A stretch of DNA of 64,000 nt from an uncultured Bacteroidota bacterium (GCA_902510415.1 CABXBH010000003.1:35522-99521); one strand, 5' to 3'; shown: positions 37,254-55,136, counted from the first letter of the stretch. Made by a program: numbers and translations. The notes: generated by a model from the sequence alone, not told the origin.

Positions 37254-38696
37254 TTATTTAAATGTTAGATATCGGTCTTTAATTTTATTAATTCTAAGCA
37301 TTTTATAATCTAGAAAATAATTTTGATACAATTTCCAAGGCAAGCTAGAACCTTGTTTAGGAAACATGTGAGAAGACCTATGAATATATCCTGAATTTAA
37401 ATTAAGTAGAGGAGAAATATTCATCTTTTCGTCCAATGTATTAGGTGTAAAATATTTGTATTTTTTCTTTTCCATAAACTTAAAAAGTCTACTAGCGTAC
37501 TCACTTGTTAGATCACTTTTTAAAGTCCAAGAAGCGTTAGTATAACCAGCAAAAAAAATACAATTTGGTAATCCACTAAGCATTAAACCTTTATAGGTTA
37601 CCGCATTTGATGAATCATATGGGTTATTATCAATACTAATCTCAGACCCTCCAAAAGCCAAAAGTTTTAAGCCCGTTGCGCTTATAATTATATCAGCTTC
37701 TAAATTTTTACCTGATTTAAGTTTTAATCCCTTTTCAGTAAATGAATCTATATTATCAGTTATTATATTTGCTTTACCATGTCTTATCGCTTTGAATAAA
37801 TCTCCGTCAGGAGCTACACAAAATCTTTGATCCCAAGGTTTATAATTTGGTTCAAAATGAGGTTTAGCTGGAAAAGAGCCTAGTTGTTTTTGAGCAGATT
37901 TTACTAATAATTTTTTCATATAATTAGGCCATATTTTACAGGCTTGAAAAAATAAAATCTGAACAAAAATATTTTTAAATCTAATCAGTTTATGTGCAGT
38001 TTTTTTAGAGAAATACTTTTTTAAGAGTTTAGCATACTTATCACTATTAGGGAAAGCTCCCACATAAGTAGGCGATCTTTGAAGCATAGTAATTTCAGAA
38101 GTTTTATCTGCCATTTCTGGAACTATAGTTACTGCTGTTGCACCACTGCCTATAACAACGACCTTTTTATTTTTATAATCTAAATTATCAGGCCAATGTT
38201 GAGGATGGATAATGATTCCTTTAAAATCATTGATTCCTTTGTAATTTGGTGTATAACCTTTGTCATAATTATAATATCCTGTACAAGAAAACAAAAAACG
38301 AGAATAATATATTTCCTTTTTATCAAACCTATCTATGGTAGTAACAGCCCATAATTTTTTTTGAGTGTCAAAATTTGATTTTAAAACTTTTGTTTGATAT
38401 TTGATATGGTCATTTATTTTATATTCTTCGGCTGCTTCACATAGATATTTTAATATATTAGGGGCGTCGGCAAAAGATTTTGGATTATCCCAAGTTTTAA
38501 AAGAAAATCCAAAAGTATACATATCTGAATCAGACCTTATTCCAGGATATTTGAAAAGACTCCAAGTTCCACCAATTTCATGTCTAGCTTCCAAAATTTT
38601 ATAGGATTTTTCAGGATTTTTTCTCTGCAAATGGCATGCAGCACCAACTCCGGATAAACCAGCCCCAATTATGATAATGTCAGTGTAATTATTCAA
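37254..38696 (-). CDS. flavin-containing (Baeyer-Villiger type) monooxygenase
   Basis: IIGAGLSGVGAACHL, FAD/NADPH motifs, FKGIIIHPQHWPDNLDYKNKKVVVIGSGATAVTIVPEMA. Confidence 0.93.
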   Translation of the reverse strand: MNNYTDIIIIGAGLSGVGAACHLQRKNPEKSYKILEARHEIGGTWSLFKYPGIRSDSDMYTFGFSFKTWDNPKSFADAPNILKYLCEAAEEYKINDHIKYQTKVLKSNFDTQKKLWAVTTIDRFDKKEIYYSRFLFSCTGYYNYDKGYTPNYKGINDFKGIIIHPQHWPDNLDYKNKKVVVIGSGATAVTIVPEMADKTSEITMLQRSPTYVGAFPNSDKYAKLLKKYFSKKTAHKLIRFKNIFVQILFFQACKIWPNYMKKLLVKSAQKQLGSFPAKPHFEPNYKPWDQRFCVAPDGDLFKAIRHGKANIITDNIDSFTEKGLKLKSGKNLEADIIISATGLKLLAFGGSEISIDNNPYDSSNAVTYKGLMLSGLPNCIFFAGYTNASWTLKSDLTSEYASRLFKFMEKKKYKYFTPNTLDEKMNISPLLNLNSGYIHRSSHMFPKQGSSLPWKLYQNYFLDYKMLRINKIKDRYLTFK

Positions 38697-38748
38697 GTTA
38701 TTATTTTCATTATGGTTCGTATTATCTTCAATGGTTAAATCTATATAA

Positions 38749-38844
38749 TTATTTCTTTATATAGTTTTTATAGAAAGAATATAGAATTGCATAAATAATA
38801 AGCACAATCCACAGATATATAAAAACATCATTTTTATAACCCAT
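38749..38844 (-). CDS. tiny single-TM protein (31 aa), candidate
   Basis: MGYKNDVFIYLWIVLIIYAILYSFYKNYIKK* upstream of the monooxygenase. Confidence 0.35.
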   Translation of the reverse strand: MGYKNDVFIYLWIVLIIYAILYSFYKNYIKK

Positions 38845-38954
38845 AATTGGTTAATTTTAGAATAGTTAGTTGTTACAATTTAATAAAAATTAAATAATTA
38901 GATATTTCTTATGATTTACTAAATTTGTTTTATAATCCGATAATAATATTTATA

Positions 38955-39374
38955 ATGAAAAGAAAAGTAAATGCAATTTGGAAAGGAGATGGGCCTACAG
39001 GAAGTGGCGTTTTAAATGCTCAAAGTGGTGCATTTGATAATATGCCTTATAGTTTTAAAACCCGATTTGAAAATGATAACGGAATACTTGGGACAAACCC
39101 TGAGGAACTTATTGCTGCAGCACTTGCAGGTTGTTTTAATATGAAATTAAGTTTTCTGTTAAACGATGCAAATTTTAATCCTGATGAATTAAATACAGAT
39201 GCTATTTTAACTTTTGAAAATGGTAAAATAATATCAATAAATTTAAATTTAAGTGGTAAAGTACAAGAAATAACCCACGAGAAATTCATTGAATTAGCAA
39301 ATGAAGCCAAAAATAATTGCCCGATTTCGGGTGTTTTAAATTGTCCGATTTCATTAAGTGCATCTTTAATCTAA
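38955..39374 (+). CDS. OsmC/OhrA-family peroxiredoxin-like protein
   Basis: MKRKVNAIWKGDGPTGSGVLN...GTNPEELIAAALAGCFNMKLSFLL...CPISGVLNCPISL. Confidence 0.92.
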   Translation: MKRKVNAIWKGDGPTGSGVLNAQSGAFDNMPYSFKTRFENDNGILGTNPEELIAAALAGCFNMKLSFLLNDANFNPDELNTDAILTFENGKIISINLNLSGKVQEITHEKFIELANEAKNNCPISGVLNCPISLSASLI

Positions 39375-39511
39375 TGAATAGCATGAACAAAATAATCAAT
39401 AAATTAATCAATGTTTGTGTTATATTAATTGTGTACGGATTATTCTTTGATATTAAATTCAATAATAAATTCATTCAAAAAGAAATAAGAATTCATTTAA
39501 TACAACTATGA
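39374..39511 (+). CDS. small membrane protein (45 aa), candidate
   Basis: MNSMNKIINKLINVCVILIVYGLFFDIKFNNKF...; overlaps both neighbours at start/stop codons. Confidence 0.4.
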   Translation: MNSMNKIINKLINVCVILIVYGLFFDIKFNNKFIQKEIRIHLIQL

Positions 39512-39936
39512 AAAATATTAGATATCCATTAATCCTGATAAGTATTGCTCTTTGTATTTCTGGAATAAGGTGGTTAATTAACCCTGAGCCTTGGATGCTA
39601 GATCAGGTTGCAAATGAAGAGCGACTAAAAATGACTTTTGCAGAACTTTTTATAATTGAAGGCAATTCAACTTTAGGTGCATATTTAACCCAAATCTATC
39701 GGTTTTTAGGTCTCTATGTTTTAGGGATTGGGAGTATACTTCTTTCTTTCTCTGATACAAAATTCTTAAGCATACTTAGTTTTAGAAACAGATATTTAGT
39801 TATCCTTGGAATTCTATTAGTTTCAAATCTAGCATTAGCATATATGTGGATATCTTCTTCTCATTTTATATATATAATGTGGTTAGCGATAGCGCTATAC
39901 CTTTACAGCTTATATCATCACATTAAGATGAAATAA
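39508..39936 (+). CDS. hypothetical membrane protein
   Basis: Four hydrophobic segments; ATGA overlap with preceding small ORF. Confidence 0.65.
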   Translation: MKNIRYPLILISIALCISGIRWLINPEPWMLDQVANEERLKMTFAELFIIEGNSTLGAYLTQIYRFLGLYVLGIGSILLSFSDTKFLSILSFRNRYLVILGILLVSNLALAYMWISSSHFIYIMWLAIALYLYSLYHHIKMK

Positions 39937-39951
39937 AATATTTAAAAACTA

Positions 39952-41838
39952 CTATTGATTGGTTTGGAAATTATGGATTTGAAGTTGAGAAGCAAAAAAC
40001 TCATAAATCATTACCATTGCTAAAGTGTCAAGTTCACAATATTTTAATAGAGATTGTTTAATTATTTCTCTTTCGGCAGAGGACATTTCAACGTATTGAA
40101 TTTTTGCATAAGCTATTAAAGCATCTCCACCATTATTTAGCTTATTAATCATGCCTATTGGGTTATTAACTTCTGAGTAATCTGGATTTGGTAACGAATC
40201 GTAGGGGTCTATATAGCCCTCCATAATCCATCTATGCTCATTAGAGAAATTTAAAGATGTTAAATTAATTTGGCCAATAGGTTTTGAGTATTTTTTCTTT
40301 ACATATTCACAAATTTTAATAATTGTAGGAAGAACAACTTTTATTGAATTAGAGCCTTTCATATATGGATGGTAAAAATATTTTTTTACTAAATCCCACA
40401 TATCAATCATATCTCTATCACCCTTCCTTACTAACTTATTGTTTTCCTTTTTATTTGTAATAGATATTATAAAATCCATTAATTCCGTTTTATCTACTTC
40501 ATCTGAATCTATTAACTGATCGTATATTGCATTTAAAATTGAATTTTCATGGGTGGCATATTTAAAAATAGATCCTCTATCAGAATCTAAATCCTGTTTT
40601 AATTTTCTGACAAAATCATAGTTTGGGAATTTACCTGGTTCTGCATTTATATACTCTGACTTATGCTCAATTGTTCCATCAGAAAATATTATATGGTGAG
40701 AATACTGAAATGCTATTTGTTCATAAGGATGTCTTCCTTTTGTAAAAGGAAGTGCAGATGTACAAGTTTCAAAATCAATAAAATGCAACGGAAATTTCCA
40801 TTGCAGCATATTTTCTTTTAAATTCTCAACATCTAAATAGAAATCTACTTTTTCATTTAAACTTTGTTGTACTCTTTTCTTGATTTGGAGCCATTGTCTG
40901 TTTTGTACAGTTAGGTGAGTATCACAAGTGTCTTGGAAATCTTGATGATGAAGCTCGTCTAAAAAAAATATATTTGATTTAAATAATTTTTTTTGTTTTT
41001 TGAAATTCCATAGTTCATAAATATTTGGTCGCAGATAATCACTTATATTAAATTGTTGCATCCAACAATCTCTACAGACATGACCATTATAGTGCTCCCA
41101 ATTAATTTCATTTTCATTAACATAAAGTTCTGTAAAATTTTTAACTACCTGATTAAAAGGCAATCCATGAATCTTATGAAAATCTTTTAAGATAATATCA
41201 TTAATTAATTGGGTAAGATTTACTTCCTCCATAATTGGGTCGCCAATTTCTGCTATCGAATTAACTTTTACATCAATTCCCGTTCTCGTATTTTTACTAG
41301 TCATTTGGAATAATTGATTTAAACCATCAACACTAGCTTTCTTTGATTTATCAGCTAACATCAAATATGATTCTACTTCATAATCTGGAAAACATTTTTG
41401 AACAACACTTGTTTGAAAAGCTAAATCAAATAAATAAGGCTTCCATTCACGTCTTATAGATCCATTGGTATTGGTAAAAATTTTTTTCTCTGATGAATCA
41501 AATGATTTTGCCTTAACTTCAATTACCTTTATTAGATTACCAGACTTAACTAAAATGTCTGTTTTAACAAAAAGATTGTCATTTAAAAAAGCTGCTTCAT
41601 ATATTACACATTCACCTTTTTTAAGCAGCTCATTTGTTTTACTAACGGCAAGATGATTAGAGCCATTAATCAAAATACCATCTTTAAAATGAAGTCTAGA
41701 TAATTCCTCAGCCTGAAAACCTCCATCTGCTAATGCAGATAAAAAGTCATTTGATTTATCAGATGATTTGTAATCAGAAGTTAATTTTATTGGGCATTCT
41801 ATCCCCTTTTTAAAATTAGTTTTAGTTAAATATTTCAC
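39952..41838 (-). CDS. DUF2779-like nuclease candidate (PD-(D/E)XK-like N-terminal region plus DEDD/RNase H-like C-terminal domain); likely GTG start at 41838 (track start 41856)
   Basis: KTDILVKSGNLIKVIEVKAKS (D...ExK), HVCRDCWMQQF Cys pair, LHFIDFETCTSALPFTKGRHPYEQIAFQYSHHI (DxE), YATHENSILNAI. Confidence 0.8.
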   Translation of the reverse strand: MKYLTKTNFKKGIECPIKLTSDYKSSDKSNDFLSALADGGFQAEELSRLHFKDGILINGSNHLAVSKTNELLKKGECVIYEAAFLNDNLFVKTDILVKSGNLIKVIEVKAKSFDSSEKKIFTNTNGSIRREWKPYLFDLAFQTSVVQKCFPDYEVESYLMLADKSKKASVDGLNQLFQMTSKNTRTGIDVKVNSIAEIGDPIMEEVNLTQLINDIILKDFHKIHGLPFNQVVKNFTELYVNENEINWEHYNGHVCRDCWMQQFNISDYLRPNIYELWNFKKQKKLFKSNIFFLDELHHQDFQDTCDTHLTVQNRQWLQIKKRVQQSLNEKVDFYLDVENLKENMLQWKFPLHFIDFETCTSALPFTKGRHPYEQIAFQYSHHIIFSDGTIEHKSEYINAEPGKFPNYDFVRKLKQDLDSDRGSIFKYATHENSILNAIYDQLIDSDEVDKTELMDFIISITNKKENNKLVRKGDRDMIDMWDLVKKYFYHPYMKGSNSIKVVLPTIIKICEYVKKKYSKPIGQINLTSLNFSNEHRWIMEGYIDPYDSLPNPDYSEVNNPIGMINKLNNGGDALIAYAKIQYVEMSSAEREIIKQSLLKYCELDTLAMVMIYEFFASQLQIHNFQTNQ

Positions 41839-41987
41839 TCCGATAATTTCTCCCACTCATTCCAAACTTTTCCCAAAGAATTTCTAAATGCCTCAACATT
41901 TACTTGGGTTTCTTCTAGCTCATCTACCAAACCTTCAATTGTATCTAATCTAGATTCAATTGCATATATTAAATCTTCTTTACTCAT
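41835..41987 (-). CDS. 50-aa acidic small protein overlapping the DUF2779 gene start, not in supplied track
   Basis: MSKEDLIYAIESRLDTIEGLVDELEETQVNVEAFRNSLGKVWNEWEKLSE*; GTGA stop/start overlap with downstream gene. Confidence 0.65.
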   Translation of the reverse strand: MSKEDLIYAIESRLDTIEGLVDELEETQVNVEAFRNSLGKVWNEWEKLSE

Positions 41988-42060
41988 AATTATAATATTT
42001 TATTTATTAACTTAAAATACAAATTAATTTGATACCTAAATTAACTTAAAAGTTACAATT

Positions 42061-42789
42061 ATGATTGATAAAATTATAGATGCTGTTAATGATTTTTTTT
42101 CGTCAGTTACATTTAATCCAAAAGTATTTGTTGATAATAAAAAGGAGGAAGCTTATTACAATGAGGCTAACCTTCAACACGATCTTTCCTTATATCTAAA
42201 ACAAAAATTCCAAGAAAAAATTGAACTTAGACTTGAATATCCTGTAAATAAGTTACTAAAGAATGATAAAATAATATTATCTAAAAAAGAAATAGATATA
42301 ATCATAAAATTGAATAAGGGCCAAGTGGAGGTAAATAATGAATTTTTAATTATAGAATTAAAATTTCCCAAATATAATGCAGGAATGCCATTGGCGCTAT
42401 TACATGCCCTAAATGATATTCAGTTTTGTGAACAAATAAAAGAATCAAATAATTCTAAAAATATTAAACTCCATTTTGCAACCATATTTCTAACAGATAA
42501 TAAAAGGAAATGGACTAAAAGAGAACATATTTATAAGATATTTAAATTAGATAAGGACATGACCAATGTGCAGTTTACATTACCTAAAGAAATTATATTT
42601 ATAAATTCGATTGAAACTTTAAGAAAAGGGGTCAAAAAAATAAAAAAAAGAATAACAACAGATAGTGGAGATTTAGACTATGAAAATTGGGTAACCGATA
42701 ATAAAGATATAATTAAGTTGAAATCTGAACACGAAATAAAGTGGGAAATAATTGATAACAAATGGCTATACTACATATGTAAATTTTAA
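42061..42789 (+). CDS. PD-(D/E)XK nuclease-like protein of unknown function
   Basis: LEYPVNKLL...KKEIDIIIKLNKGQVEVNNEFLIIELKFPKYNAGMPLALLHALNDIQFCEQIKE: D-x(n)-ExK arrangement. Confidence 0.65.
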   Translation: MIDKIIDAVNDFFSSVTFNPKVFVDNKKEEAYYNEANLQHDLSLYLKQKFQEKIELRLEYPVNKLLKNDKIILSKKEIDIIIKLNKGQVEVNNEFLIIELKFPKYNAGMPLALLHALNDIQFCEQIKESNNSKNIKLHFATIFLTDNKRKWTKREHIYKIFKLDKDMTNVQFTLPKEIIFINSIETLRKGVKKIKKRITTDSGDLDYENWVTDNKDIIKLKSEHEIKWEIIDNKWLYYICKF

Positions 42790-42834
42790 TTTTAATATCT
42801 TCCATAATGTGAGATATTTAAATAATGTGTTATA

Positions 42835-45800
42835 TTATTTTTTAATTAATCTTTTTGCCTTTTTAATTATCCTAGTTTCTGATGTTGTGAATATTTCATC
42901 TAACTGTTCTAAATTATTTAATGAATCTATAATCAATTTTAAACCTTCATTAGATTTATTGTAAAGTAGATTCATCCCCTTCTCTAACTGACTCAAATTA
43001 TAAATTTTCGGTAATGGATAATAATACTTACAAGCTTTATCAATCATTTCAATTGCTTCTCCATATTTCTTTTGTAGAGATAAACATCGTGCGTAATTTA
43101 ATAAACAATTTCCATACTCTACAACTACCGTTCTTGCTTCACCATCAGTATAAAATAATTCTTGGATATTTTCTGAAAGGGGAATTAGTTCGCCATCAAC
43201 AAAAGACCAATTAGGTGGATCAAATGTATATTGTGTTTCAAACTTTTTATGGTGAGCATCCAATGCTTTTTTGGTGAAATCCAATGCTTTTTTAGAGCTT
43301 TTTTTCTTAAGATAAAGTTGAGCCATTTTTTGGAATTGATGAGCCAAATGGGAATGGCTAACTAATGGGTTAGTCATACCTAATTCGTCAGAAATTTTAG
43401 CTTTATCCAAAAGATAATTTAAATATTGTGTACCCAGATTTATACAATCGTCATGAAAATCAGGACATTTTGATTCATTTTCTGATTGCCATTCTAAATC
43501 ATCTGCAATATTAACGCAAGCTTTGCTATACTCGTTTGAATCTTCATTAAAGGCTGATTTTAATCTTTCTAAATAATCCAATTGTAATTTTTTATAGCTA
43601 TTAAAATCTTTTTTTGATAAATAATGAATCTTTTTGGCGTCTAAAAACCACATCGAAGCCTTTGTAACAGAGTTTGTATCTAAAATCTTTTTCAAGAAAT
43701 TATCAGCCTCCTTGAAATTTTGATCTGCAGTTTCAGGATTATTAGAAATATATATTTCACCTGGTCTTACGGGTTTTGAACCTTCGGTTATACTTAGCAT
43801 AAACCTTATAAAAGTAAGTACCCAAGCTTCTGTGATTTTACCTTGAATTTTCAGCTTTTCATTATGATGAATAAAAACCTCATTTGATTTTTTTCCGTCC
43901 TTGAACTTTAAATGGCAAAAATTGAGATAACTATTAATAGAATCATACAAAAACTTAGTATTTTGATCTTTTTCAGAATCAAGTAGTTTCTCATATTGAT
44001 CTACAATTTTTTCAATTTTTTCTTGATCAGTCCCAATTTCATTTGAGATTTTTTCAATATCCCATAATGTAAATTCTTTAAATGCCAATTCATAGAATTT
44101 AGTAGGTTTTAATTGTTTTAATGCCATGTCAAACATTACTCTCTGACCTTCTTCAATTTCCTTTTGTCTTTCTTCATATCCACCAGAAAGAATTAATGCA
44201 ACCTCATCATCAAGAGAAAGGTTTATATCACCAAGTTCTTTAATAAAATATATTAGAGATAAGCCATTTAACTTGCTTGGAAGTTTATTTAGAGAAGGGA
44301 TAAAACTCTGAAAATTCTGAACATTAAATCCAGCATCTGTAAATGTAACAATGGATTTTTCAGAAGTGTTCATAATTTCACCATTTAGAATAATTAAAAG
44401 CCTAAGGTCATTAGATAATTCGTCCGTTTCGATTCCAATGGGTAGTGGTAATTTAGCTTTGCGTTCTTCTTCTTCGTTTAATTCATCCAATATTTTTTGC
44501 TTATCAGTAAATGAAAAATTAACATCATCTGCAATTATTCTTAAGTTTTTTAGTAAAGTAGCAAGCTCAGTGAAATCTTGTTTTTCAAGTAAATTTGTAA
44601 AGGCATCAAGTTTCCCCAATTTATTTGAATATAAATATCTGCAAATAATATCCAATATTAAATTATTACTCTGCTTCACATAATATTCAGAAAAAGTAAG
44701 TGGAATCATTCGTCGAAGTACCTTTAATAAATCCTCAGTATTATACTTTTCAGGATTTTCAATTATATGAGACTGTAATTCTAAATATCTTTTATTGTAT
44801 TCAATTACAATTTGTCTTTCTCCCTCTTCTTGGATTTTAGATTCTTTAAAATATGACTTTAAAGCGCCTATGATTCTCTTATCGCTAAACTTGTATATAT
44901 TATCTTGATTTGAAACATCAATCAAAAGACCTTGATGAACAGCCTTTTCTAGAAAATCTAAAACATCTAAAAGCTCGTAGCCCCAAACTTGTGCTAGTAT
45001 ATCTGCGTCAAATTTATTTCCGATAATCGAAGCGCTTTCAAGTATCCTTCTCCATTTTGATTCAAATGAATCAAAGATTTTATGATAATAACTATCTACA
45101 TCTTCGAAATTTGGGAGAGATTCTATATCAACTGTTTGAGTTAAAACATATCCGTCTGGAGTATATTTTAAATATTGGTCTGAAATCCACGATTCTAAAA
45201 CCTTGAATACATATAGAGGAGTTAATTTGTCTTTTGATTCTAATTGTAATTGTTCGTTATAAGCATTAAATAGATTATTTATCTGATTCATTGAACTACT
45301 TGCAATTTTATATCCGTTATCATCAGCACTTAGATTTTTTACAAAATCAACAAGGTTAAATGAATTACTATCCAAAAGGTTACTTAAATCAAAAAGGTTT
45401 TTTGTTGTATCATCTAAATTGTTTAGCTCTTTTTTTAACTCCTGATAATTTAATCCTCTATAGGAGCCTTTAATCTCTGCACGAACTGTTATTATAATGC
45501 AGAGATTTTTTCTAAGAAAGAAATTTCTGTTTACAGTTTTTATAAAATGTTTAAGTAGTGTTAGTGTCTCAGGATCAATCCAATGAACATCTTCCATTAC
45601 AAATAAAACTTTTTTATTAATGTTTGTAAGCTTATCTATTATTTCAAGTGAAATTTCATTCATGGTTTTTTTAGCACTGCTAGAAAAATTGGTAATTTCT
45701 AAAGGAATTCCTGTTGTATCACTAGCTATGTTTATAATACCCTTAGTGATTTTATCCGTAGATTCAGATCTACTGTTCCAAGTTTCACCAATCAATCTAC

Positions 45801-47631
45801 TGAAGGCTTGCAGAAAAGGTTCAAATGAAACTGCAGTATCATCCTGTATCTCATCACAATCTCCATAGAAAACAGTCCAATTATTTTGCTCAAAATATTG
45901 TTCAGCTTCTTCCAAACTTCTTGTTTTCCCAATACCCATAGGAGCTTCGATTAACATTATGTTTAAGTTATCGGACATTTTAGCATCAACTTCTTTATAA
46001 ATTGACTCTGCTGGATTCATAACACTTTTAACATAACTGACTTTATTAAGAATTGAGCTTTCAGTAGCTTCTTTAGACTTCTTTTCAAACAATCTATCAA
46101 AGTAATTATCCAATATATGATTCAGAATAGATATTGGTGCGATAATAATAAAGCTCAAAAATAGATTTGAAACTGAAAATTCAAATAGTATTATTCTGTT
46201 GAAAATTATTAATGAAATAAGACCTAATATTAAACCTGTAATTGCTTGTCTTCTCTTATAGCTGTTTTTTGTTTTAATTCCGTATTGGAAATAGGATTTC
46301 CCTAATAAATTTCCAATTAAAAGTGTAATAAATATTAATAAAAGATGAATTACAAATGGATATGTTTCTTCCTGAATAAAAGAGAAAATAAAGATTGGAA
46401 AATAAGTTGCATATAAGCACGAATTGATAAAAAAGGTATACCCTAAAGTTGTATGGAAGCCATCTATATCTAATCTGTTAACAATAAATAAATTAATTAT
46501 AATTGGCAAAAAACTCATCAATATTGTAATCAACAATATCCATACATTTACATTAATTTCCCCAACATCTACATCACCACTTGGGATTATAAATGAGCAT
46601 ACATATATCATTACAAATGATAAAATTATTGGTAAGAGAAAATATAATGCTACGAATTTAACTTTGTTTAAAACAGATAATATTAATTCCTTGTTTGAAT
46701 CTCTTGTAGCGTGATAAATATTTTTTCTATTAATAAAAATTAAAGAAATGCCGTAAGCTAATGAGACGAAAATTATTGCTAAAAGAAAAACAACTAATAA
46801 TTCTAATAATAAAGGTAGGTCTCTCTTGTCCAATGTATATCCTTTTGCAAATATAGATTCGAGGAATCCTTTAGATTTTTCATATGTTTTAAAATCTGCA
46901 TTTACAAACCAAACCTTGGTATCGATAACGTCAAGATTATTAACAGTGAAAATACCAAGTCTATCTAATTTTAAGTCATCAATTATTTTATTTATATTCT
47001 CTTCCGTTGCTAATCCGTTTAATAAATTATTAGAATTTTCCGCCCCAAGGATTTGGATTAATTCATTAGATTGTAGTATTCGGTGATTAGAATTTGAGAC
47101 TAAAGTTTGATTTATGATTTCAAATGTTTCATCGTCTAGACATTTTTGTTCTGGTATTAGATCACAAGTTTTTCTAACGAGAATTGAAGTAATACTTGCA
47201 TCCGAAAGGGGAACATTACCAAGCACTTTATATTTTGTGCTCAACACTTGTGATATAGCACTGTCATATGCATACTCTATAGCATCATCAATGAATCCAT
47301 AGTAGTGTGGTATTCCTGAATAAAATTCAAAAAATTCTATTTTACTAATTACATTATTTTCAATTGTATTTTTTGTTAATGAGATACTCTTTTCAATCTC
47401 TCTAGCATAATTATTATCATTTTTGATAAAACGAATAGAGTCTACATATTTTAATGCTTTTTCTAAAAAATACTCGTTATTATAATTATCTCTAGAGATA
47501 TACTTATAAGTATCTATATGCTTCTTATAATTTTCAATTTTTAGTGAATCTTGAATTGACAAAGGATTTTTTTCACTAGAAAATAGCGAGAAAGAAAAAA
47601 AGAATATTAATAGACCAAAATAATTTTTCAA
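42835..47631 (-). CDS. 1598-aa membrane-anchored STAND/AAA-16-type ATPase with extracytoplasmic N-terminal domain and C-terminal helical (TPR-like) region
   Basis: Signal peptide (MKNYFGLLIFFFSFSLFSS), several hydrophobic segments (aa ~270-520), Walker A EAPMGIGKTRS, Walker B KKVLFVMEDVHWID, helical C-terminus. Confidence 0.85.
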   Translation of the reverse strand: MKNYFGLLIFFFSFSLFSSEKNPLSIQDSLKIENYKKHIDTYKYISRDNYNNEYFLEKALKYVDSIRFIKNDNNYAREIEKSISLTKNTIENNVISKIEFFEFYSGIPHYYGFIDDAIEYAYDSAISQVLSTKYKVLGNVPLSDASITSILVRKTCDLIPEQKCLDDETFEIINQTLVSNSNHRILQSNELIQILGAENSNNLLNGLATEENINKIIDDLKLDRLGIFTVNNLDVIDTKVWFVNADFKTYEKSKGFLESIFAKGYTLDKRDLPLLLELLVVFLLAIIFVSLAYGISLIFINRKNIYHATRDSNKELILSVLNKVKFVALYFLLPIILSFVMIYVCSFIIPSGDVDVGEINVNVWILLITILMSFLPIIINLFIVNRLDIDGFHTTLGYTFFINSCLYATYFPIFIFSFIQEETYPFVIHLLLIFITLLIGNLLGKSYFQYGIKTKNSYKRRQAITGLILGLISLIIFNRIILFEFSVSNLFLSFIIIAPISILNHILDNYFDRLFEKKSKEATESSILNKVSYVKSVMNPAESIYKEVDAKMSDNLNIMLIEAPMGIGKTRSLEEAEQYFEQNNWTVFYGDCDEIQDDTAVSFEPFLQAFSRLIGETWNSRSESTDKITKGIINIASDTTGIPLEITNFSSSAKKTMNEISLEIIDKLTNINKKVLFVMEDVHWIDPETLTLLKHFIKTVNRNFFLRKNLCIIITVRAEIKGSYRGLNYQELKKELNNLDDTTKNLFDLSNLLDSNSFNLVDFVKNLSADDNGYKIASSSMNQINNLFNAYNEQLQLESKDKLTPLYVFKVLESWISDQYLKYTPDGYVLTQTVDIESLPNFEDVDSYYHKIFDSFESKWRRILESASIIGNKFDADILAQVWGYELLDVLDFLEKAVHQGLLIDVSNQDNIYKFSDKRIIGALKSYFKESKIQEEGERQIVIEYNKRYLELQSHIIENPEKYNTEDLLKVLRRMIPLTFSEYYVKQSNNLILDIICRYLYSNKLGKLDAFTNLLEKQDFTELATLLKNLRIIADDVNFSFTDKQKILDELNEEEERKAKLPLPIGIETDELSNDLRLLIILNGEIMNTSEKSIVTFTDAGFNVQNFQSFIPSLNKLPSKLNGLSLIYFIKELGDINLSLDDEVALILSGGYEERQKEIEEGQRVMFDMALKQLKPTKFYELAFKEFTLWDIEKISNEIGTDQEKIEKIVDQYEKLLDSEKDQNTKFLYDSINSYLNFCHLKFKDGKKSNEVFIHHNEKLKIQGKITEAWVLTFIRFMLSITEGSKPVRPGEIYISNNPETADQNFKEADNFLKKILDTNSVTKASMWFLDAKKIHYLSKKDFNSYKKLQLDYLERLKSAFNEDSNEYSKACVNIADDLEWQSENESKCPDFHDDCINLGTQYLNYLLDKAKISDELGMTNPLVSHSHLAHQFQKMAQLYLKKKSSKKALDFTKKALDAHHKKFETQYTFDPPNWSFVDGELIPLSENIQELFYTDGEARTVVVEYGNCLLNYARCLSLQKKYGEAIEMIDKACKYYYPLPKIYNLSQLEKGMNLLYNKSNEGLKLIIDSLNNLEQLDEIFTTSETRIIKKAKRLIKK

Positions 47632-47727
47632 AGTCTTGGGGTTAATTTACTAAGTTTAAAATAATTATTATAAACTAAAAATAAGACTTTTATAAAGAAT
47701 AATATTTTGTAATTTCAAAAAATAAGC

Positions 47728-47994
47728 ATGAGGAATTTAAAAGACGAGAGTAAATTATTTGCTAAATGGGCATCTAAATTAGGTGATAAATACATGGATA
47801 AAGCTATAAACAGATTAATGAATGAAAATAAAGAGCTAGTTTACAATCAAAATGATTTAGCCACTAAACTAGATAAGTACTTTGATTTAGAATTTCAATT
47901 AAGAGAAAAATTATCTCCTGAAAAGGGTAAAAAAAATCTTTCAATTATCAAGAGTTTTAAGAAAGCTCAGAATGAAATATTTAAAAAAAATTAA
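47728..47994 (+). CDS. 88-aa hypothetical helical protein
   Basis: Intact ORF, divergent from STAND ATPase, spaced 2 nt from next gene. Confidence 0.65.
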   Translation: MRNLKDESKLFAKWASKLGDKYMDKAINRLMNENKELVYNQNDLATKLDKYFDLEFQLREKLSPEKGKKNLSIIKSFKKAQNEIFKKN

Positions 47995-47996
47995 AA

Positions 47997-48467
47997 ATGG
48001 AAAATAAAATCAATTTAAAAATTGAAGGAGACCATGAGTTTGGTTTATTTTCAATATTTGTTGTAGAGCTTAAAAAAGATAATACGAGTCTTCCTATTTT
48101 TTTGACAGCAGAGCAAACAAATCTTGGCCTTGAGGACCCTGATGAAGCATTAGAACCTATAATGGAATTGTTGAATATTTTACTTGAAAGTGGATTTTCT
48201 GTACATCAAACAATAGAAATAGTAAATGGAGATGAAAGTGAACAACAGCATGAATTTATAAGCAACTTTGACAATAGAGTTGATGAAACATGGAGTTCTG
48301 AAATTCAAAAAATACATATAAGATTCTCTAATTTAGAAGATCCCCAAAACAGTAATATTGAGCTAGAATCAATTGGGGGGCACAACTTTATAATTTATAC
48401 TGAAAATAATGAAATTTCCCCTGTTGAAATTATGAATAAGTTAAAAGTTATCTTTAATCAAAACTGA
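47997..48467 (+). CDS. 156-aa hypothetical protein
   Basis: Intact ORF in the same operon orientation; no recognised domain. Confidence 0.65.
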   Translation: MENKINLKIEGDHEFGLFSIFVVELKKDNTSLPIFLTAEQTNLGLEDPDEALEPIMELLNILLESGFSVHQTIEIVNGDESEQQHEFISNFDNRVDETWSSEIQKIHIRFSNLEDPQNSNIELESIGGHNFIIYTENNEISPVEIMNKLKVIFNQN

Positions 48468-48514
48468 AATTAAAAAAATATTTATTAAATCGATAGGAAT
48501 ATTGAGGGAAATAC

Positions 48515-48546
48515 TTGATGCTTTACTTCAATTTTCTTATTTTTTG
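48515..48546 (+). promoter_or_regulatory. candidate Bacteroidota sigma-ABfr-like promoter for the MoxR operon
   Basis: TTG - 20 nt - TATTTTTTG, resembling TTG-N19-TAnnTTTG with one extra T; 27 nt upstream of the MoxR start. Confidence 0.3.
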
Positions 48547-48572
48547 ATTATATAAGAATTAAGCAAAAAACA

Positions 48573-49703
48573 ATGTCAATAGAATTTATAGAATTTGGTA
48601 AAAAAGGAAACAGTAGAGAGATTAAGGTAATTTTATCTCATATTTTTGAAAGAAATAATGACTTAAATAAAGAAGATAAAAGAGGTACTGCTGTTTGTAT
48701 TTGGGGGACACACGGATTAGGTAAAACCCAAATCGTTAGAGATTATGCATTAGAAAAAAAATGGAAGTTCTCATATATAGCTCCTGCACAGTTTGAAGAA
48801 ATGGGTGATTTACATGGAATGCCAACTGTTGTAGATCCTGATAAAAGAATTACAGGTGATGAATATACTGTGTATAGTCCTCCAGACTGGGTTCCTAGAG
48901 AAGAAGGGCCTGGTATATTATTATTAGATGATATCAACAGAGCCGATGATAGAATTCTTAGAGGTTGCATGCAATTATTACAAAATTTTGAACTTACATC
49001 ATGGAAATTGCCTCCAAAATGGCAGATTGTTGCTACTGCAAATCCTGAGGGTGGAGATTATTCAGTGACTCCAATGGATGGTGCAATGCTCACAAGGATG
49101 TTACATGCCACGCTAAAGTTTGATGCTAAGATATGGGCTGAATGGGCTTATGCAGCTAACGTTGACGAAAGAGGAATTGCTTTTGTTTTGACTTATCCTG
49201 AACTTGTAAATTCTGACAGAACCACCCCTAGAAGTTTAACTCAGTTTTTTGAACAAATCGCATCTATTGAAAATCTTAAGGATAATTTACAACTTGTTCA
49301 AGCTCTTGCTTTAAGTTCACTTGATGAAGTTACTGTTTCTTCTTTCATAGCTTTTGTGAATGACGAATTAACGCAGCTAATTGATCCTGAAGAAATTTTA
49401 GATGCTGAAGATTTTAAATCTCTCGAAAAGAGAATAAAAGATATTTCAGTGGATGATTCTGGGGCAAAAAGAGTTGATCGTCTTGCAACTATGTGTTCAA
49501 GATTATACTTAAAATTAGCCTCCGATGATTATAAACAAGGAAAAAATCATAGCAAAAATTTAATTAAATTTTTAATGTTTGAAACTATCCCAAATGATTT
49601 ACTTATGAGCCTATATATGGACTTGCAAAAACATGGTAGTGACGAAATAAAAGAAATGACAAGAGACAAAAAATTAGCAAGTAAATTATTATCAACTCTG
49701 TAA
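48573..49703 (+). CDS. MoxR-type AAA ATPase
   Basis: Walker A WGTHGLGKTQIV; Walker B GILLLDDINRADDRILRGCMQLLQNF; QIVATANPEGGDYSVTPMDGAMLTRM. Confidence 0.92.
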   Translation: MSIEFIEFGKKGNSREIKVILSHIFERNNDLNKEDKRGTAVCIWGTHGLGKTQIVRDYALEKKWKFSYIAPAQFEEMGDLHGMPTVVDPDKRITGDEYTVYSPPDWVPREEGPGILLLDDINRADDRILRGCMQLLQNFELTSWKLPPKWQIVATANPEGGDYSVTPMDGAMLTRMLHATLKFDAKIWAEWAYAANVDERGIAFVLTYPELVNSDRTTPRSLTQFFEQIASIENLKDNLQLVQALALSSLDEVTVSSFIAFVNDELTQLIDPEEILDAEDFKSLEKRIKDISVDDSGAKRVDRLATMCSRLYLKLASDDYKQGKNHSKNLIKFLMFETIPNDLLMSLYMDLQKHGSDEIKEMTRDKKLASKLLSTL

Positions 49704-49713
49704 ATAAAATGTT

Positions 49714-52335
49714 ATGCTTAGCAAAGAGGATAAACAAAATGTATCTAAAATAAAGAAACTCATCAGAACCAGAGATTTTGAAAAAATTGAAATGGGGATT
49801 GAATTAGTTAGATCAGTGAATAATCCCAAGATATTTGATGAGTTGTTAGGTAATGTTGAATATAAATTTGACCAGTGGTCAGGATCTTTCTCACACGACT
49901 GGAAAGGAGCGGGTCCGGATGAACATTATTTTCAAACTGCAATACTTGGTTTATTAAATTTTTCACCAAAGGGCTCAAAAGGATCTGTAATTAGAGATTC
50001 CGTTAAAATCCTTAAAATAAGGGGTGAAATTACAAGCGGTTATTCTCACTTAAGGTCAAAGGTATTCCTCAAATATTTATCAAATTTCTCCAATCTTAAA
50101 ATCTTGAGAGTTGATAATTATAAAGAAATAATTGGATTTGAAGAAATTTATGATTTACCGCTTGAAGGTCTTGAACTAGATCGAGGTTATTCTCTACCAA
50201 ATCATGAAGAGAAATGGGGTTTTAAAAAACTTAAAAGAATATTTTTTACTATGCCAGAATCCAATCCATACAGATATGCTGACGATCTTGATGAAAAAAC
50301 TGAAGCTAAAAAAATACTAGGATTAGACTTTTTATCTAATTTAATTAGCCTGGAAACAGTTAAAGTAACAAGGCACGGCGATACTAATTTTTCAATTAAG
50401 GGATTGAGTTTTTTGAAGAATTTAAAATTTCTCTATACCTATAATTTAGGCATTGATAATGTCAATGATTTAAACACTCTGGAAAATTTAAATTATGTGA
50501 AATTAAATGAAAAATATCTTACTGATATATCAGGACTAAATTCATCTGCTAATTTAGAGTTTGTTGATTTAAGTAGCTCAGATAATTTATCCGATATTAG
50601 CCCATTAAGTAAATTGAAAAATATCAAATTAATTGATGTTTCAAGTACGGGAATCATATCCTTAAAGGGATTAGAAAACTCCGCTAACCTTCACGGAGTA
50701 AATATTTCAAGAAGTCCTATAAAAAATCTAGATGGTCTACTTAATGCAAAAAATCTTTATTGTGTTAATGCTAGTACTTGTAAAGAATTAGAGAACATTG
50801 AGGGAATAAAGAATTCCATAAAATTAAAAGAAATACTCTTGGATAATTGCTCTTCACTTTTGAGTCTGAGCGGTATAGAAAACTGTGGAGATTTAAGATT
50901 AATAAACCTTTCCAAAAGTGGAATTTCAAATTTAGATTCTTTAATTAATTGTAAAAATATATTTAAGAATAGTAAAACAAAATGGGATGAAGAAACAACG
51001 GAGTGGAGTGGCAATACTGGCTCTCAAGAAAATCCTTTTTGGGGTATAACAGAGGAAGTTAGTAAAGTTGGATATGGTAATCTTTATCAAGCAAAATATA
51101 TTGGCGAAAAATGTAGGGAATATTACAGTGACAGGGGTTGGAGTGCGCCAACCTTAAATGAGTTTGTGATTACAGAGTGTCCAAATCTTGAGTCGGTTGA
51201 AGGGTTAAAAAATTCAGGAATTCAATTACTTGTAATTAATAATTGTCCAAATATTAAAAAGATTGACTATCTGTCTGAATTTTCACTTTTACAATGCTGT
51301 GATTTCACAGATTGTGCAAATCTTGAAAGTGTTGAAAGCTTGTCCAATCTAAATCTGATGGATCGATTAATTTTAAAGAAGTGCTATAAAGTAAAACCAA
51401 AGCCAAGATTCTTATTAATGGATTCTTTTGAAAAAATTAACGAGTATTTATCAAAATTTAAAAAAAATGTTTCAGAAGTTAAGTTAGATTCTTCAGAAAA
51501 AGTAACATCAAAGAAACTAGAAAAATTACTGCTTTCTAATGATTACAGTAATATAGAATTAGGCTTAGAATTGGCAAATTCTATATCAAACAAAGACATC
51601 TTTGATTTCTTGCTTGAGGATGTAAAATTTTTAAACAATAAAATCATACCTAATGGCAAATTTTTGGGTAATAAAAAAACGAAAGAGTTTAGAGATTTTG
51701 CTCTTGAAGGATTAATTTCTATTGCGCCGGATTCATGTAGTATTGCGAAGAAAATCAAACAGAGTTTCAAGGTAAAGGTTTTAAATGGATCTAATTTAAA
51801 TTCACTTTTATCAGTTTCTGGATTTAGTAATTTAGAGGAGCTTACAATTCATGATACAAACATATCCACTGTTTCAGACTTATCTAGATTAAAAAAATTA
51901 AAAAAATTATTATTTATTGATAATCCTGAATTAAAAAATCTTTCAGGTATTAAAGGTTTAGATAATTTAGAATATTTAGGTATTAAAAATTGCAAAGGAT
52001 TATCAGATTTAAGTCATATTGCCGGATTTGAAAAATTATTAGGCATTCAAGTCAATTTTTCTGGTATTACTTCAACGAAAGGATTAGAAAATCTTACGCT
52101 ACTAAAAAATATAAATTTAAATAATAATACTCAGCTAAAAGAAATTGATGAACTAGGTAAAATTAATTCATTAGAAATAGTAACAATTAGTGAATGTCAA
52201 AATATTAAAAGCTTAGATGCACTTACAAAACTCCCAAATCTAACTTTTTTAAGAGTTGACAAGCATAGTTTAAAAAATATAGAAGGCATTCAATCATTAA
52301 TTAAACCTCTTATTCAAGGTTTAAGAAAAGAGTAA
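49714..52335 (+). CDS. 873-aa leucine-rich-repeat protein with internally duplicated helical + LRR architecture
   Basis: Many LRR-type units (L-x-x-L-x-I/L-x-x-N/C) and two copies of a helical module (LIRTRDFEKIEMGIELVRSVNNPKIFDELLGNV; LLLSNDYSNIELGLELANSISNKDIFDFLLEDV). Confidence 0.88.
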   Translation: MLSKEDKQNVSKIKKLIRTRDFEKIEMGIELVRSVNNPKIFDELLGNVEYKFDQWSGSFSHDWKGAGPDEHYFQTAILGLLNFSPKGSKGSVIRDSVKILKIRGEITSGYSHLRSKVFLKYLSNFSNLKILRVDNYKEIIGFEEIYDLPLEGLELDRGYSLPNHEEKWGFKKLKRIFFTMPESNPYRYADDLDEKTEAKKILGLDFLSNLISLETVKVTRHGDTNFSIKGLSFLKNLKFLYTYNLGIDNVNDLNTLENLNYVKLNEKYLTDISGLNSSANLEFVDLSSSDNLSDISPLSKLKNIKLIDVSSTGIISLKGLENSANLHGVNISRSPIKNLDGLLNAKNLYCVNASTCKELENIEGIKNSIKLKEILLDNCSSLLSLSGIENCGDLRLINLSKSGISNLDSLINCKNIFKNSKTKWDEETTEWSGNTGSQENPFWGITEEVSKVGYGNLYQAKYIGEKCREYYSDRGWSAPTLNEFVITECPNLESVEGLKNSGIQLLVINNCPNIKKIDYLSEFSLLQCCDFTDCANLESVESLSNLNLMDRLILKKCYKVKPKPRFLLMDSFEKINEYLSKFKKNVSEVKLDSSEKVTSKKLEKLLLSNDYSNIELGLELANSISNKDIFDFLLEDVKFLNNKIIPNGKFLGNKKTKEFRDFALEGLISIAPDSCSIAKKIKQSFKVKVLNGSNLNSLLSVSGFSNLEELTIHDTNISTVSDLSRLKKLKKLLFIDNPELKNLSGIKGLDNLEYLGIKNCKGLSDLSHIAGFEKLLGIQVNFSGITSTKGLENLTLLKNINLNNNTQLKEIDELGKINSLEIVTISECQNIKSLDALTKLPNLTFLRVDKHSLKNIEGIQSLIKPLIQGLRKE

Positions 52336-52340
52336 ATTAC

Positions 52341-53516
52341 GTGAGTAAAGACATTAGCGAGGAAATATCAAGGTGTATAATTAAGATGCTATTAAAAGAG
52401 CCTTTTTATGCACACTTTTTAAGTGGTATTATTAGAGAAGTTACTGACAAAGTTCCTACAGCTGCTGTTGGATTTAAATCTGGAAAAATTGCCTTGTATG
52501 TTAATGAAAATTTCTTTCTAAAAGAATTAAGATCAATGACCGAACGAGTTGCTGTCATTAAGCACGAAACGCTACATATAATATTTAAGCATTTATTTAG
52601 AATGAAGACCAAGGACTACGATAATAAGCTTTTTAATATTGCTGCTGACCTTGTAGTTAATCAATTAATTGCACCCTGGAAACTGCCTGATTCAGCAGTA
52701 ACCTTGGAAACATTTCCAGAGTTAAAACTACCACGAGATAAATCAGTTGAGTGGTATTATGAAAATTTAAAAAAAACTGCTTCTAAAGACAAGGAATATA
52801 AAAAAAGGTTGCAAGAAATTTTTGATCAAGATACACACAGTGACCATAGAATGTGGGGGGAGAATGAAAACTTTAGCATGGAAGTCGTGGAAACCGAAGT
52901 GGATAGAATGATTATTCAAGCAAAGGATCGAACACCCGTAAAAGATCATGGGACAATTCCATTAGGAATCCAATCACTGATAAAAAATATAATCGAAAAA
53001 AGAAATCCTCAAATAAATTGGAAAAGAGCGTTAAAGATTTTTTCATCAACAAGTAGAAAAACCCGAGTTTATCATACTTTGAAAAGGGTTAGTAAAAGGT
53101 TTGGAACTCGTCCTGGAATAAAAATAAAAAGATTTCAAAAACTTGCCGTTGCAATTGATACCTCAGGTTCTATTAATATAGATGATTTTAATGATTTTTT
53201 TGGCGAAATACATAGTATGTGGAGATTCGGCGCTGAAATTGATGTTCTTGAATGTGATGCTGCAATTCAAAAAAAGTATTCTTACAGAGGTCGCATTCCG
53301 GAATTCATTCACGGAGGCGGAGGAACTTCTTTTGATCCAGTTTTTGAACACATAAAATCAAACCGATTTGAAAGATATGACGGTTGTATCTATTTAACTG
53401 ATGGTTATGCGCCAGAACCAACTATCAAGCCGCCGTGTAAAGTTTTTTGGTGTATAACAAAAGATGGTAAAATAGGACCCCATCTTAAATTTGGAAGAGT
53501 TGTTAAAATGAAATAA
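52341..53516 (+). CDS. DUF2201-type putative metallopeptidase fused to a VWA-like domain
   Basis: AVIKHETLHIIFKH (HExxH); AIDTSGSI MIDAS, HGGGGTSFDP, YLTDGYAPEP. Confidence 0.92.
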   Translation: MSKDISEEISRCIIKMLLKEPFYAHFLSGIIREVTDKVPTAAVGFKSGKIALYVNENFFLKELRSMTERVAVIKHETLHIIFKHLFRMKTKDYDNKLFNIAADLVVNQLIAPWKLPDSAVTLETFPELKLPRDKSVEWYYENLKKTASKDKEYKKRLQEIFDQDTHSDHRMWGENENFSMEVVETEVDRMIIQAKDRTPVKDHGTIPLGIQSLIKNIIEKRNPQINWKRALKIFSSTSRKTRVYHTLKRVSKRFGTRPGIKIKRFQKLAVAIDTSGSINIDDFNDFFGEIHSMWRFGAEIDVLECDAAIQKKYSYRGRIPEFIHGGGGTSFDPVFEHIKSNRFERYDGCIYLTDGYAPEPTIKPPCKVFWCITKDGKIGPHLKFGRVVKMK

Positions 53517-53532
53517 TTAAGAAGTGATTAAT

Positions 53533-53670
53533 TTATATACTTCTAAATCTTCTTGCACCAGTCCAAGCTACCTTTTTAGTTCTTCCTAAATATGATTTAG
53601 CTTCTAGTCTATCATTAAATTCATTTCTTGCTGAATTTAATTGAGTGTTTCCGTTATCTTGATTTTTCAT
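53533..53670 (-). CDS. 45-aa basic small protein, convergent with the VWA gene (not in track)
   Basis: MKNQDNGNTQLNSARNEFNDRLEAKSYLGRTKKVAWTGARRFRSI*. Confidence 0.5.
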   Translation of the reverse strand: MKNQDNGNTQLNSARNEFNDRLEAKSYLGRTKKVAWTGARRFRSI

Positions 53671-53780
53671 TGATAAATATTGTTAAAAAATTCGGCTGCA
53701 AAAATATATATAAAATTGGGTTTATATACTTTTTTTTAAATAAATTTTAGAAAAAAATTTAAGCCTATTTTAGGAACAAA

Positions 53781-53820
53781 TACTAAACTACTTTTTCACT
53801 AACTTGCAGAAATACTAAAC
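53781..53820 (+). repeat. degenerate copy of intergenic repeat (actttttcactaacttg core)
   Basis: tactaaactactttttcactaacttgcagaaatactaaac. Confidence 0.6.
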
Positions 53821-53831
53821 AATCAAATATT

Positions 53832-54545
53832 ATGAAAAAAATACTTTGCCTATTTACAGTTTTATTATTTTTTGTTAACACACACTCTCAAAAACAAGCT
53901 ATTGAAAAACTAACATATGAAGACGCTAATAATATTGACTATTTTATTAAAGTCAAAAACAATACAAGAGTTCTCGAGTATATAACTCAGGATGGAAATA
54001 GTCTGAAAGTAGGAGATACACTTGTTTTAGGTAGACCAACTTCTGAATCTGCAATTTCAACTACCTATGGTGGTGGTGCTTCTACAGGTGGTATTAGTGC
54101 AGGTGGCGCAAGAACAAAAACACGGGTTAATAAGGAGTTTGAATTTATCAGATTAGGAAGGCCTGCAGGCTTTGGTAATGTAATGTCTGCAATGAATGGT
54201 GAAGGTGCAAGTATGGCGGGTGTAAATTTGGCAGGAGAAGTTGTCAAAATCGACGAAATAAAAGTTGCTCATAAAGGATCTAAGAAGAAGCCTTTACGTT
54301 TAATCCTAATTATGGGTGAGATAAATGGAAGGGCTTTTGGAATAAATAAATATCTAAGCGTTCTTGACACTGATCTTGCAATGTCATATGGTGAGATACT
54401 ATTAAAGAATAAAAAAATGACGAGGGATGAGGCAATTGCAAAACTTAAAGAAGCAAAAGACCTAATGGACTTAGGGCTTATGTCTGAAGAAGAATTTAAA
54501 GCTATGAGAAGTGAATTACAACCTTTAATAATGGGTAATAAGTAA
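53832..54545 (+). CDS. secreted protein with C-terminal SHOCT-like segment
   Basis: Signal peptide; MTRDEAIAKLKEAKDLMDLGLMSEEEFKAMRSELQPLI. Confidence 0.7.
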   Translation: MKKILCLFTVLLFFVNTHSQKQAIEKLTYEDANNIDYFIKVKNNTRVLEYITQDGNSLKVGDTLVLGRPTSESAISTTYGGGASTGGISAGGARTKTRVNKEFEFIRLGRPAGFGNVMSAMNGEGASMAGVNLAGEVVKIDEIKVAHKGSKKKPLRLILIMGEINGRAFGINKYLSVLDTDLAMSYGEILLKNKKMTRDEAIAKLKEAKDLMDLGLMSEEEFKAMRSELQPLIMGNK

Positions 54546-54632
54546 AGCAATATAGGATATGAAAAAGAAAAATATGTTCTATACTTTTTATATATTAAAT
54601 ATTAATAGTATAGATAATATGGAAAAAAATAA

Positions 54633-54890
54633 ATGAAAAAGCTGATACTATTACTATTTATTACTCTTGGTCTCGCTTGTATTGATAACAATGATAATGA
54701 TGCGCCTGATATTTGTGTTGATGAAACATTAATCTCCTTAGAAACTCCTTGCTTAACGGTAGAGGAGCCTGTTTGTGGGTGCGACGGAAATACTTATAGT
54801 AATAGTTGTGTAGCTTTTAATTATTATGGTATAATAGAATATGAAGAAGGTATCTGTCCGGGAGACTGTAAATCATTTGATTGCGATTAG
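54633..54890 (+). CDS. Kazal-type lipoprotein, paralog of 36552-36776
   Basis: MKKLILLLFITLGLAC; EPVCGCDGNTYSNSCVAFNYYGIIEYEEGIC. Confidence 0.85.
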   Translation: MKKLILLLFITLGLACIDNNDNDAPDICVDETLISLETPCLTVEEPVCGCDGNTYSNSCVAFNYYGIIEYEEGICPGDCKSFDCD

Positions 54891-54929
54891 TCAATCATTT
54901 GGTGATAAAAAAATTAATACTAAAAGAAA

Positions 54930-55136
54930 ATGGATAAACTTGAAAAACTTATATATTCTGTTAAACATCTTCCTTCATTTTTGTATTTTGGTTCTGTTGG
55001 GTTAATAGGATATGACATTTATTGTGATATAATTAAAGAGACAGAGTTTCTTAATGAATATACAGAGACTCCATTATACATTTTATTTTTTTATATTACA
55101 TATTTAGGATTGAAAAACTTAAAAAAAAATAAATAA
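54930..55136 (+). CDS. small membrane protein
   Basis: Two hydrophobic segments; intact 68-aa ORF. Confidence 0.5.
   Translation: MDKLEKLIYSVKHLPSFLYFGSVGLIGYDIYCDIIKETEFLNEYTETPLYILFFYITYLGLKNLKKNK

What the first reader, a model, noticed from the sequence alone, without database searches (positions are those of the whole stretch)
39952..53670. Accessory island with two nuclease-like proteins flanking the STAND and MoxR modules
DUF2779-like protein, its 50-aa overlapping partner, a PD-(D/E)XK-like protein, the membrane STAND ATPase and the MoxR triad lie contiguously between ordinary genes (OsmC/small membrane proteins before, secreted small proteins after). Two nuclease folds, NTP-dependent switches and LRR recognition in ~14 kb is the composition expected of a defence island. 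Whether they form one system is inference.
Basis: inference. Interest (0 to 1): 0.7.

Follow-up and report, generated by a model that had tools for sequence, protein, structure and literature searches.

The report
Mobile MoxR–LRR–metallopeptidase defence-like island
This marine flavobacterium carries a 13.6-kb gene island missing from all 20 held genus-mates; it joins two separable sets of probable anti-virus genes, one of them a widespread, apparently undescribed three-gene set made of a molecular motor (MoxR), a fast-evolving leucine-rich-repeat sensor and a metal-dependent protease.

Summary
Window 39939–53530 is an accessory block. Its left (FAD, OsmC, 142-aa gene) and right (45-aa gene, PEMT) neighbours occur in the genus, but no gene of the block occurs in the 20 other genus genomes, except one 39%-identical STAND. 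In three genus-mates the two flanking genes lie about 120 bp apart (in inverted orientation).

It is not one system but at least two modules. Module B is MoxR (48573–49703), LRR protein (49714–52335) and an HExxH-zincin/vWA protein (52341–53516), a tight operon. Relatives occur in six phyla: vWA partner within 5 kb in 38/41 loci, LRR in 28/41 (0 LRR hits in 589 kb of control loci). LRR evolves about three times faster than its partners. It matches none of the four published MoxR–vWA ternary classes and no PADLOC model. Module A is a Cas4-like/DnaQ-like nuclease (DUF2779), a probable second nuclease and a membrane STAND ATPase. Module A genes recur next to Module B in two other genomes, but a sister pair shows they move separately.

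Best reading: an LRR-sensed, MoxR-gated metallopeptidase conflict system inside a defence island. Defence function is inferred, not shown. New variant of a known kind.

The parts
39508..39936 (+). left flank: 142-aa membrane protein found across the genus; last backbone gene before the block
   Evidence: DNA hits in at least 10 genus genomes
39952..41856 (-). Module A: DUF2779 nuclease, Cas4-like PD-(D/E)XK (D100, E113-x-K115) plus DEDD 3'-5' exonuclease (D361, E363, D485, D610); likely start GTG ~41838
   Evidence: Pfam PF11074 3e-25; motifs invariant in 14 relatives where the region is present; family described in PMC3985635
41835..41987 (-). 50-aa coiled-coil-like ORF, GTGA overlap with the DUF2779 start
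   Evidence: no counterpart beside other DUF2779 genes
42061..42789 (+). Module A: 242-aa putative PD-(D/E)XK nuclease
   Evidence: motif E35/D79/E99xK101 kept in two relatives at 31% identity; no Pfam or PDB hit
42835..47631 (-). Module A: 1598-aa membrane STAND ATPase (N-terminal extracytoplasmic part, TM segments 269-508, AAA_16 ~552-713, TPR-like C-terminus)
   Evidence: relatives at 67-69% in G533/G534 and 39-47% in G535, G538, G009
47728..47994 (+). 88-aa ORF, unknown
47997..48467 (+). 156-aa protein, unknown; homologue (66%) near DUF2779 in G534
48573..49703 (+). Module B: MoxR-family AAA+ ATPase (Walker A GTHGLGKT, Walker B ILLLDD)
   Evidence: Pfam AAA_5 5e-5; Walker motifs kept in nearly all relatives; 80 loci
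49714..52335 (+). Module B: 873-aa LRR protein; its N-terminal segment recurs near residue 600 and in extra LRR proteins of related loci
   Evidence: Pfam LRR models to 1e-11
52341..53516 (+). Module B: DUF2201 protein, HExxH zincin-like metallopeptidase domain plus C-terminal vWA domain with MIDAS
   Evidence: Pfam PF13203 5e-17, PF09967 1e-16; motifs; AF2 pLDDT 91 and vWA fold Z~12
53533..53670 (-). right flank: 45-aa gene found across the genus; first backbone gene after the block

Best explanation
The region is a horizontally acquired defence-type island made of two separable modules. Module B (MoxR-LRR-DUF2201) most likely works as a three-part conflict system. The fast-evolving LRR protein recognises an invader-derived or damaged-self ligand; the MoxR hexamer, coupled through the vWA MIDAS site, uses ATP to remodel the complex; this switches on the HExxH metallopeptidase joined to the vWA domain, which cleaves a cellular or viral target and stops the infection, perhaps by dormancy or death. 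Module A adds a two-fold exonuclease/nuclease (DUF2779), a second probable nuclease and a membrane STAND switch that may sense envelope events. Shown: gene content, intact catalytic motifs, conserved linkage of the three Module B genes, faster change of LRR, accessory status, horizontal spread. Inferred: sensing by LRR, peptidase activity, defence function, any crosstalk between modules.
For: Block absent from 20/20 genus-mates with flanks present. MoxR tree: the window's clade holds 42 sequences from at least six phyla, support 100/100, with vWA within 5 kb in 38/41 and LRR in 28/41, against 0 LRR hits in 589 kb of control loci. More distant Bacteroidota loci also pair vWA-MoxR with ~900-aa LRR proteins. 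HExxH in 53/59, MIDAS in 56/59, Walker motifs nearly always kept. dN/dS: LRR 0.13-0.33 against MoxR 0.04-0.12 and vWA 0.04-0.18. Extra LRR paralogues beside the triad in L053, L054, L060. PADLOC families among MoxR neighbours 247 against 4 in a control of equal number. RT-LRR-MoxR-vWA cluster. DUF2779 neighbours rich in type I R-M. Sister loci G533/G534 show the triad as a unit present/absent beside STAND.
Against: No member has been tested. PADLOC has no model for any of the proteins. Many MoxR relatives in a second clade (Saprospiraceae) have no vWA or LRR and lie near ordinary metabolic genes. The PADLOC contrast counts families, not proteins, and a few proteins (GmrSD, Septu, RT) give most of it; several hits are generic. 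The peptidase domain had no solved relative at sequence level and its fold was not separately tested. The LRR dN/dS is below 1, so relaxed constraint could explain it.
Confidence: 0.58

Rival explanations
1. The MoxR-DUF2201 pair is a metal-cofactor or complex-assembly chaperone (RavA-ViaA, CoxD-CoxE or chelatase style) and LRR is a client adaptor; nothing to do with defence.
For: MoxR-vWA pairs are known to do this (reviewed in PMC7159879). Some relatives sit beside metabolic genes. Large viral contigs carry MoxR-vWA pairs, so the pair has other uses.
Against: No cofactor enzyme is linked in the window. The set is present in 1 of 149 relatives and crosses at least six phyla, unlike a housekeeping chaperone. 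LRR is fast-evolving. HExxH is kept.
Confidence: 0.2
2. All island genes form one integrated system (STAND + nucleases + MoxR triad).
For: STAND lies next to the triad in the window and, divergently and 60 bp away, in L055; STAND, DUF2779 and the triad share 26 kb in G533. STAND is in four of the genomes that carry the nearest triads (G533, G534, G535, G538; not G536, G537), against 4/149 relatives.
Against: In G534 the triad lies on another contig and the STAND cluster is intact without it. L057, L059, L060 genomes have the triad without STAND. G009 has a STAND relative without MoxR. Orientation and order differ each time.
Confidence: 0.12
3. The block is unrelated accessory cargo in a rearrangement-prone region (stress or surface functions), not immunity.
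For: The same site in relatives holds ordinary genes such as a TonB-receptor-like gene. Gene order around it is fluid. No repeats or scar at the ends.
Against: Nuclease, STAND, MoxR and LRR content; defence neighbours of relatives.
Confidence: 0.15
4. The block is a mis-assembled piece of another organism in this metagenome-assembled genome.
For: The nearest relatives of the genes are in other uncultured flavobacteria; the genome is a 68%-complete, 63-contig assembly.
Against: One contig joins it to genus backbone genes on both sides; G+C is even across it; proteins are 66-91% identical, not near-identical, to the other genomes.
Confidence: 0.05

Closest known systems
MoxR-vWA-centric ternary conflict systems (VMAP, iSTAND, FtsH, beta-propeller classes; Kaur et al. 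2020, PMC7159879)
   Same: MoxR AAA+ ATPase plus vWA protein plus a third, variable component; patchy and mobile; predicted threshold switch
   Different: Third component is an LRR protein; the vWA sits C-terminal to an HExxH zincin-like domain; no VMAP, inactive STAND, FtsH or beta-propeller; LRR is not mentioned in that paper's main text
RavA-ViaA / CoxD-CoxE MoxR-vWA chaperones
   Same: MoxR plus vWA pair with intact MIDAS
   Different: No zincin or LRR there by description; those are assembly chaperones and largely not island-borne (own knowledge; not tested)
DUF2779 family (F.17 of the RNase H-like superfamily, PMC3985635)
   Same: DUF83/Cas4-like PD-(D/E)XK plus DEDD 3'-5' exonuclease; all catalytic residues present
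   Different: The window and G533/G534 proteins lack an inserted segment with an extra CxxC pair seen in the other relatives aligned
Membrane STAND ATPases (AAA_16 with TPR)
   Same: P-loop and Walker B intact; TPR-like C-terminus
   Different: N-terminal extracytoplasmic region and a block of TM segments before the ATPase; no named family

Membership tests
MoxR-vWA ternary systems (general) | AAA+ MoxR and vWA protein encoded together | tested here: met
   vWA within 5 kb in 38/41 relatives
MoxR-vWA ternary systems (general) | a conserved third component of class VMAP, iSTAND, FtsH or beta-propeller | tested here: not met
   third component is LRR; no such gene in the window block by Pfam/NCBIfam/PADLOC
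iSTAND ternary class | catalytically inactive STAND as core partner | tested here: not met
   adjacent STAND keeps the P-loop (APMGIGKTR) and Walker B (VLFVMEDVHW) and is absent from most triad genomes
VMAP ternary class | MoxR N-terminal motifs WxhapG and PsWRxa | tested here: not met
   read from the sequence: the 44 residues before Walker A hold neither motif (motifs as quoted)
MoxR-vWA ternary systems (general) | variable effector domains C-terminal to the vWA | tested here: not met
   vWA ends at the C-terminus, residues ~264-391
MoxR-vWA ternary systems (general) | anti-invader function | not testable with these tools
   needs phage assays
Any system modelled in PADLOC-DB 2.0.0 | HMM match of member proteins | tested here: not met
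   no hit for ten proteins
DUF2779 nucleases | PF11074 plus Cas4-like PD-(D/E)XK, catalytic residues intact | tested here: met
PD-(D/E)XK nucleases (242-aa protein) | E-D-ExK motif in an alpha-beta-beta-beta-alpha-beta core | tested here: inconclusive
   motif kept in 2 relatives; fold prediction failed
Zincin metallopeptidases (DUF2201 N-terminus) | HExxH in a helix | tested here: met
   HExxH in 53/59; helix 66-81 in the model
Zincin metallopeptidases (DUF2201 N-terminus) | zincin fold shared with solved peptidases | tested here: inconclusive
   the structure search was filled by vWA matches

The most novel reading that the evidence does not exclude
MoxR-LRR-zincin-vWA is a fifth, so far undescribed class of MoxR-vWA conflict system: a bacterial innate immune pathway in which an LRR receptor gates a AAA+-activated metalloprotease, spread by transfer through at least six phyla and sometimes linked to reverse transcriptases or BRCT proteins.
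Probability: 0.5. Interest if true: 0.8.

Novelty: new variant of a known kind. Interest (0 to 1): 0.62.

Why it matters
LRR receptors are the classic pathogen sensors of plant and animal immunity. A widespread bacterial set that couples an LRR protein to a MoxR motor and a metallopeptidase would add a class to the MoxR–vWA conflict systems, give a testable sensor–motor–protease mechanism, and flag many loci that current defence finders miss.

Tried and rejected
PADLOC on the block gave no hit. The 242-aa protein has no match in phages, plasmids or viral contigs; its single-sequence AF2 model is unusable. The 50-aa partner is not found beside 11 other DUF2779 genes, so 'two-gene nuclease system' was dropped. 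The MoxR family at 50% identity or more is not on held plasmids. Foldseek and VIA listed only vWA folds near the top for the DUF2201 model; no zincin match appeared, which shows nothing either way. No repeats longer than a chance 12-nt AT-rich match at the ends. No Rfam RNA in 37000–56500. The variable site in relatives holds ordinary genes, so 'dedicated defence hotspot' was dropped. My first LRR scan by regular expression was too strict and was replaced by a profile.

Full report
What is there. The window lies in a 68%-complete metagenome-assembled genome. Pfam confirms DUF2779, AAA_16 (STAND), AAA_5 (MoxR), LRR, and DUF2201_N plus DUF2201 (metallopeptidase and vWA). The three Module B genes are separated by 10 and 5 bases. 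The DUF2779 gene starts inside the stop of a 50-aa ORF (GTGA overlap).

Accessory status. The MoxR gene is in 1 of 149 relatives, DUF2779 in 1 of 21 genus genomes, STAND in 4 of 149. A DNA search of window 37501–57500 against the 21 genus genomes finds the FAD, OsmC, 142-aa, 45-aa and PEMT genes in many of them but nothing of 39939–53530, except a STAND relative in G009. In G015, G017 and G004 the 142-aa and 45-aa genes lie about 118–120 bp apart, with the 142-aa gene inverted relative to the window. So the block is an addition, but it came with rearrangement and there is no clean empty site or scar. In other relatives the same gap holds ordinary genes. The genus genomes are 56–86% complete, so a core gene cannot plausibly be missed in all 20.

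Module B beyond the genus. A scan of 84,980 species gave 80 loci with a MoxR relative at 49–90% identity. In the maximum-likelihood tree the window's clade (42 rows, 100/100) mixes Bacteroidota, Verrucomicrobiota, Myxococcota, Pseudomonadota, Actinomycetota and Cyanobacteriota; some of these are metagenome bins whose labels may be wrong. Of the 41 other loci, 38 have the vWA protein within 5 kb (the other three are cut by contig ends) and 28 an LRR protein, while 589 kb of control loci gave no LRR hit. Gene order varies: MoxR–LRR–vWA in the nearest loci (window, L053, L054, L055, L057, L058), LRR–MoxR–vWA, or vWA–MoxR–LRR. In L103 a 1452-aa reverse-transcriptase protein precedes LRR–MoxR–vWA; L114 and L129 have an ORF of the same size in the same place. 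BRCT domains recur in or beside the set (L053, L054, L094, L115).

Function clues. HExxH is kept in 53 of 59 DUF2201 relatives and DxSxS in nearly all; Walker A/B of MoxR in nearly all. AF2 gives pLDDT 91, HExxH in a helix, and a C-terminal vWA that matches solved vWA domains at Z about 12. LRR has dN/dS 0.13–0.33, against 0.04–0.12 (MoxR) and 0.04–0.18 (vWA) for the same set of genome pairs; dS is near saturation, so protein identities (LRR 41–77%, MoxR 70–93%) are the safer comparison. Extra LRR proteins sharing the N-terminal segment lie beside the triad in L053, L054, L060. This fits a diversifying sensor. Scans of 129 neighbours found 247 PADLOC families, against 4 in 129 control proteins, driven by a few strong proteins (Septu, GmrSD/HEC-06, an RT); ordinary genes are also common near the more distant clade.

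Module A. The DUF2779 protein keeps D100, E113-x-K115 (Cas4-like) and D361/E363/D485/D610 (DEDD exonuclease), invariant in 14 relatives where the region is present, as expected from PMC3985635. Relatives are patchy (63 of 375 Bacteroidota genomes), and the ORFs around 12 of them include type I R-M subunits and WYL regulators. The 242-aa protein is probably PD-(D/E)XK, but on motifs alone.

One system or several? G533 carries DUF2779 (74%), STAND (67%) and the triad (90/73/91%) within 26 kb, and L055 has STAND divergently 60 bp from MoxR. G534 has the same thioredoxin–STAND–nuclease–DUF2779 locus as G533 without the triad, which lies on another contig. So the triad moves as a unit and has landed beside STAND more than once. 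Association is real; obligate partnership is not shown.

Literature. The four described MoxR–vWA ternary classes are VMAP, iSTAND, FtsH and beta-propeller; LRR does not appear in that paper's main text, and searches for MoxR with LRR and phage defence found no description of this set in the papers held. Subscription papers and preprints were not searched, so 'undescribed' is provisional.

Verdict. A real accessory block with defence-type content; best explained as a two-module island whose main interest is an LRR–MoxR–metallopeptidase set. Function remains inference.

Noticed in passing
L103:4339-12332 (also L114, L129): A 1452-aa protein with an N-terminal reverse transcriptase domain and a DUF4116 match lies directly upstream of LRR-MoxR-vWA; closest PADLOC models are type III-A and Ec107-like retron RTs. 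L114 and L129 have an ORF of similar size in the same place.
   Followed up: partly
L053:2347-3150 (-), L054:9064-9888 (-); L094, L115: BRCT-domain proteins recur divergently upstream of MoxR or fused within the ~900-aa LRR proteins.
   Followed up: partly
L216-L223: Viral contigs (21-181 kb) encode MoxR relatives at 35-38% identity, three of them (L216-L218) with a vWA/zincin partner just upstream and no LRR.
   Followed up: no
window 38747-38900: Segment 83-88% identical at DNA level in many genus genomes, between FAD and OsmC genes; read by eye it suggests a 31-aa membrane-type ORF on the minus strand; no Rfam match.
   Followed up: partly
window 53533-53670: 45-aa gene conserved across the genus, next to the 142-aa gene in several relatives.
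   Followed up: partly
window 36552-36776 and 54633-54890: Small secreted Kazal-like proteins; pieces of this DNA occur in many copies in genus genomes, suggesting a dispersed family that may promote rearrangement.
   Followed up: no
L031:70-15254 (G009:C25): STAND relative followed by a potassium-channel-like gene and several secreted or lipoprotein-like genes, without MoxR; suggests an envelope-related role of this STAND family.
   Followed up: no
L230:7765-8721: 318-aa protein beside DUF2779 in G533 (and 332-aa in G534) with a D..ELKFK motif, possibly another PD-(D/E)XK nuclease, not similar in sequence to the window's 242-aa protein.
   Followed up: partly
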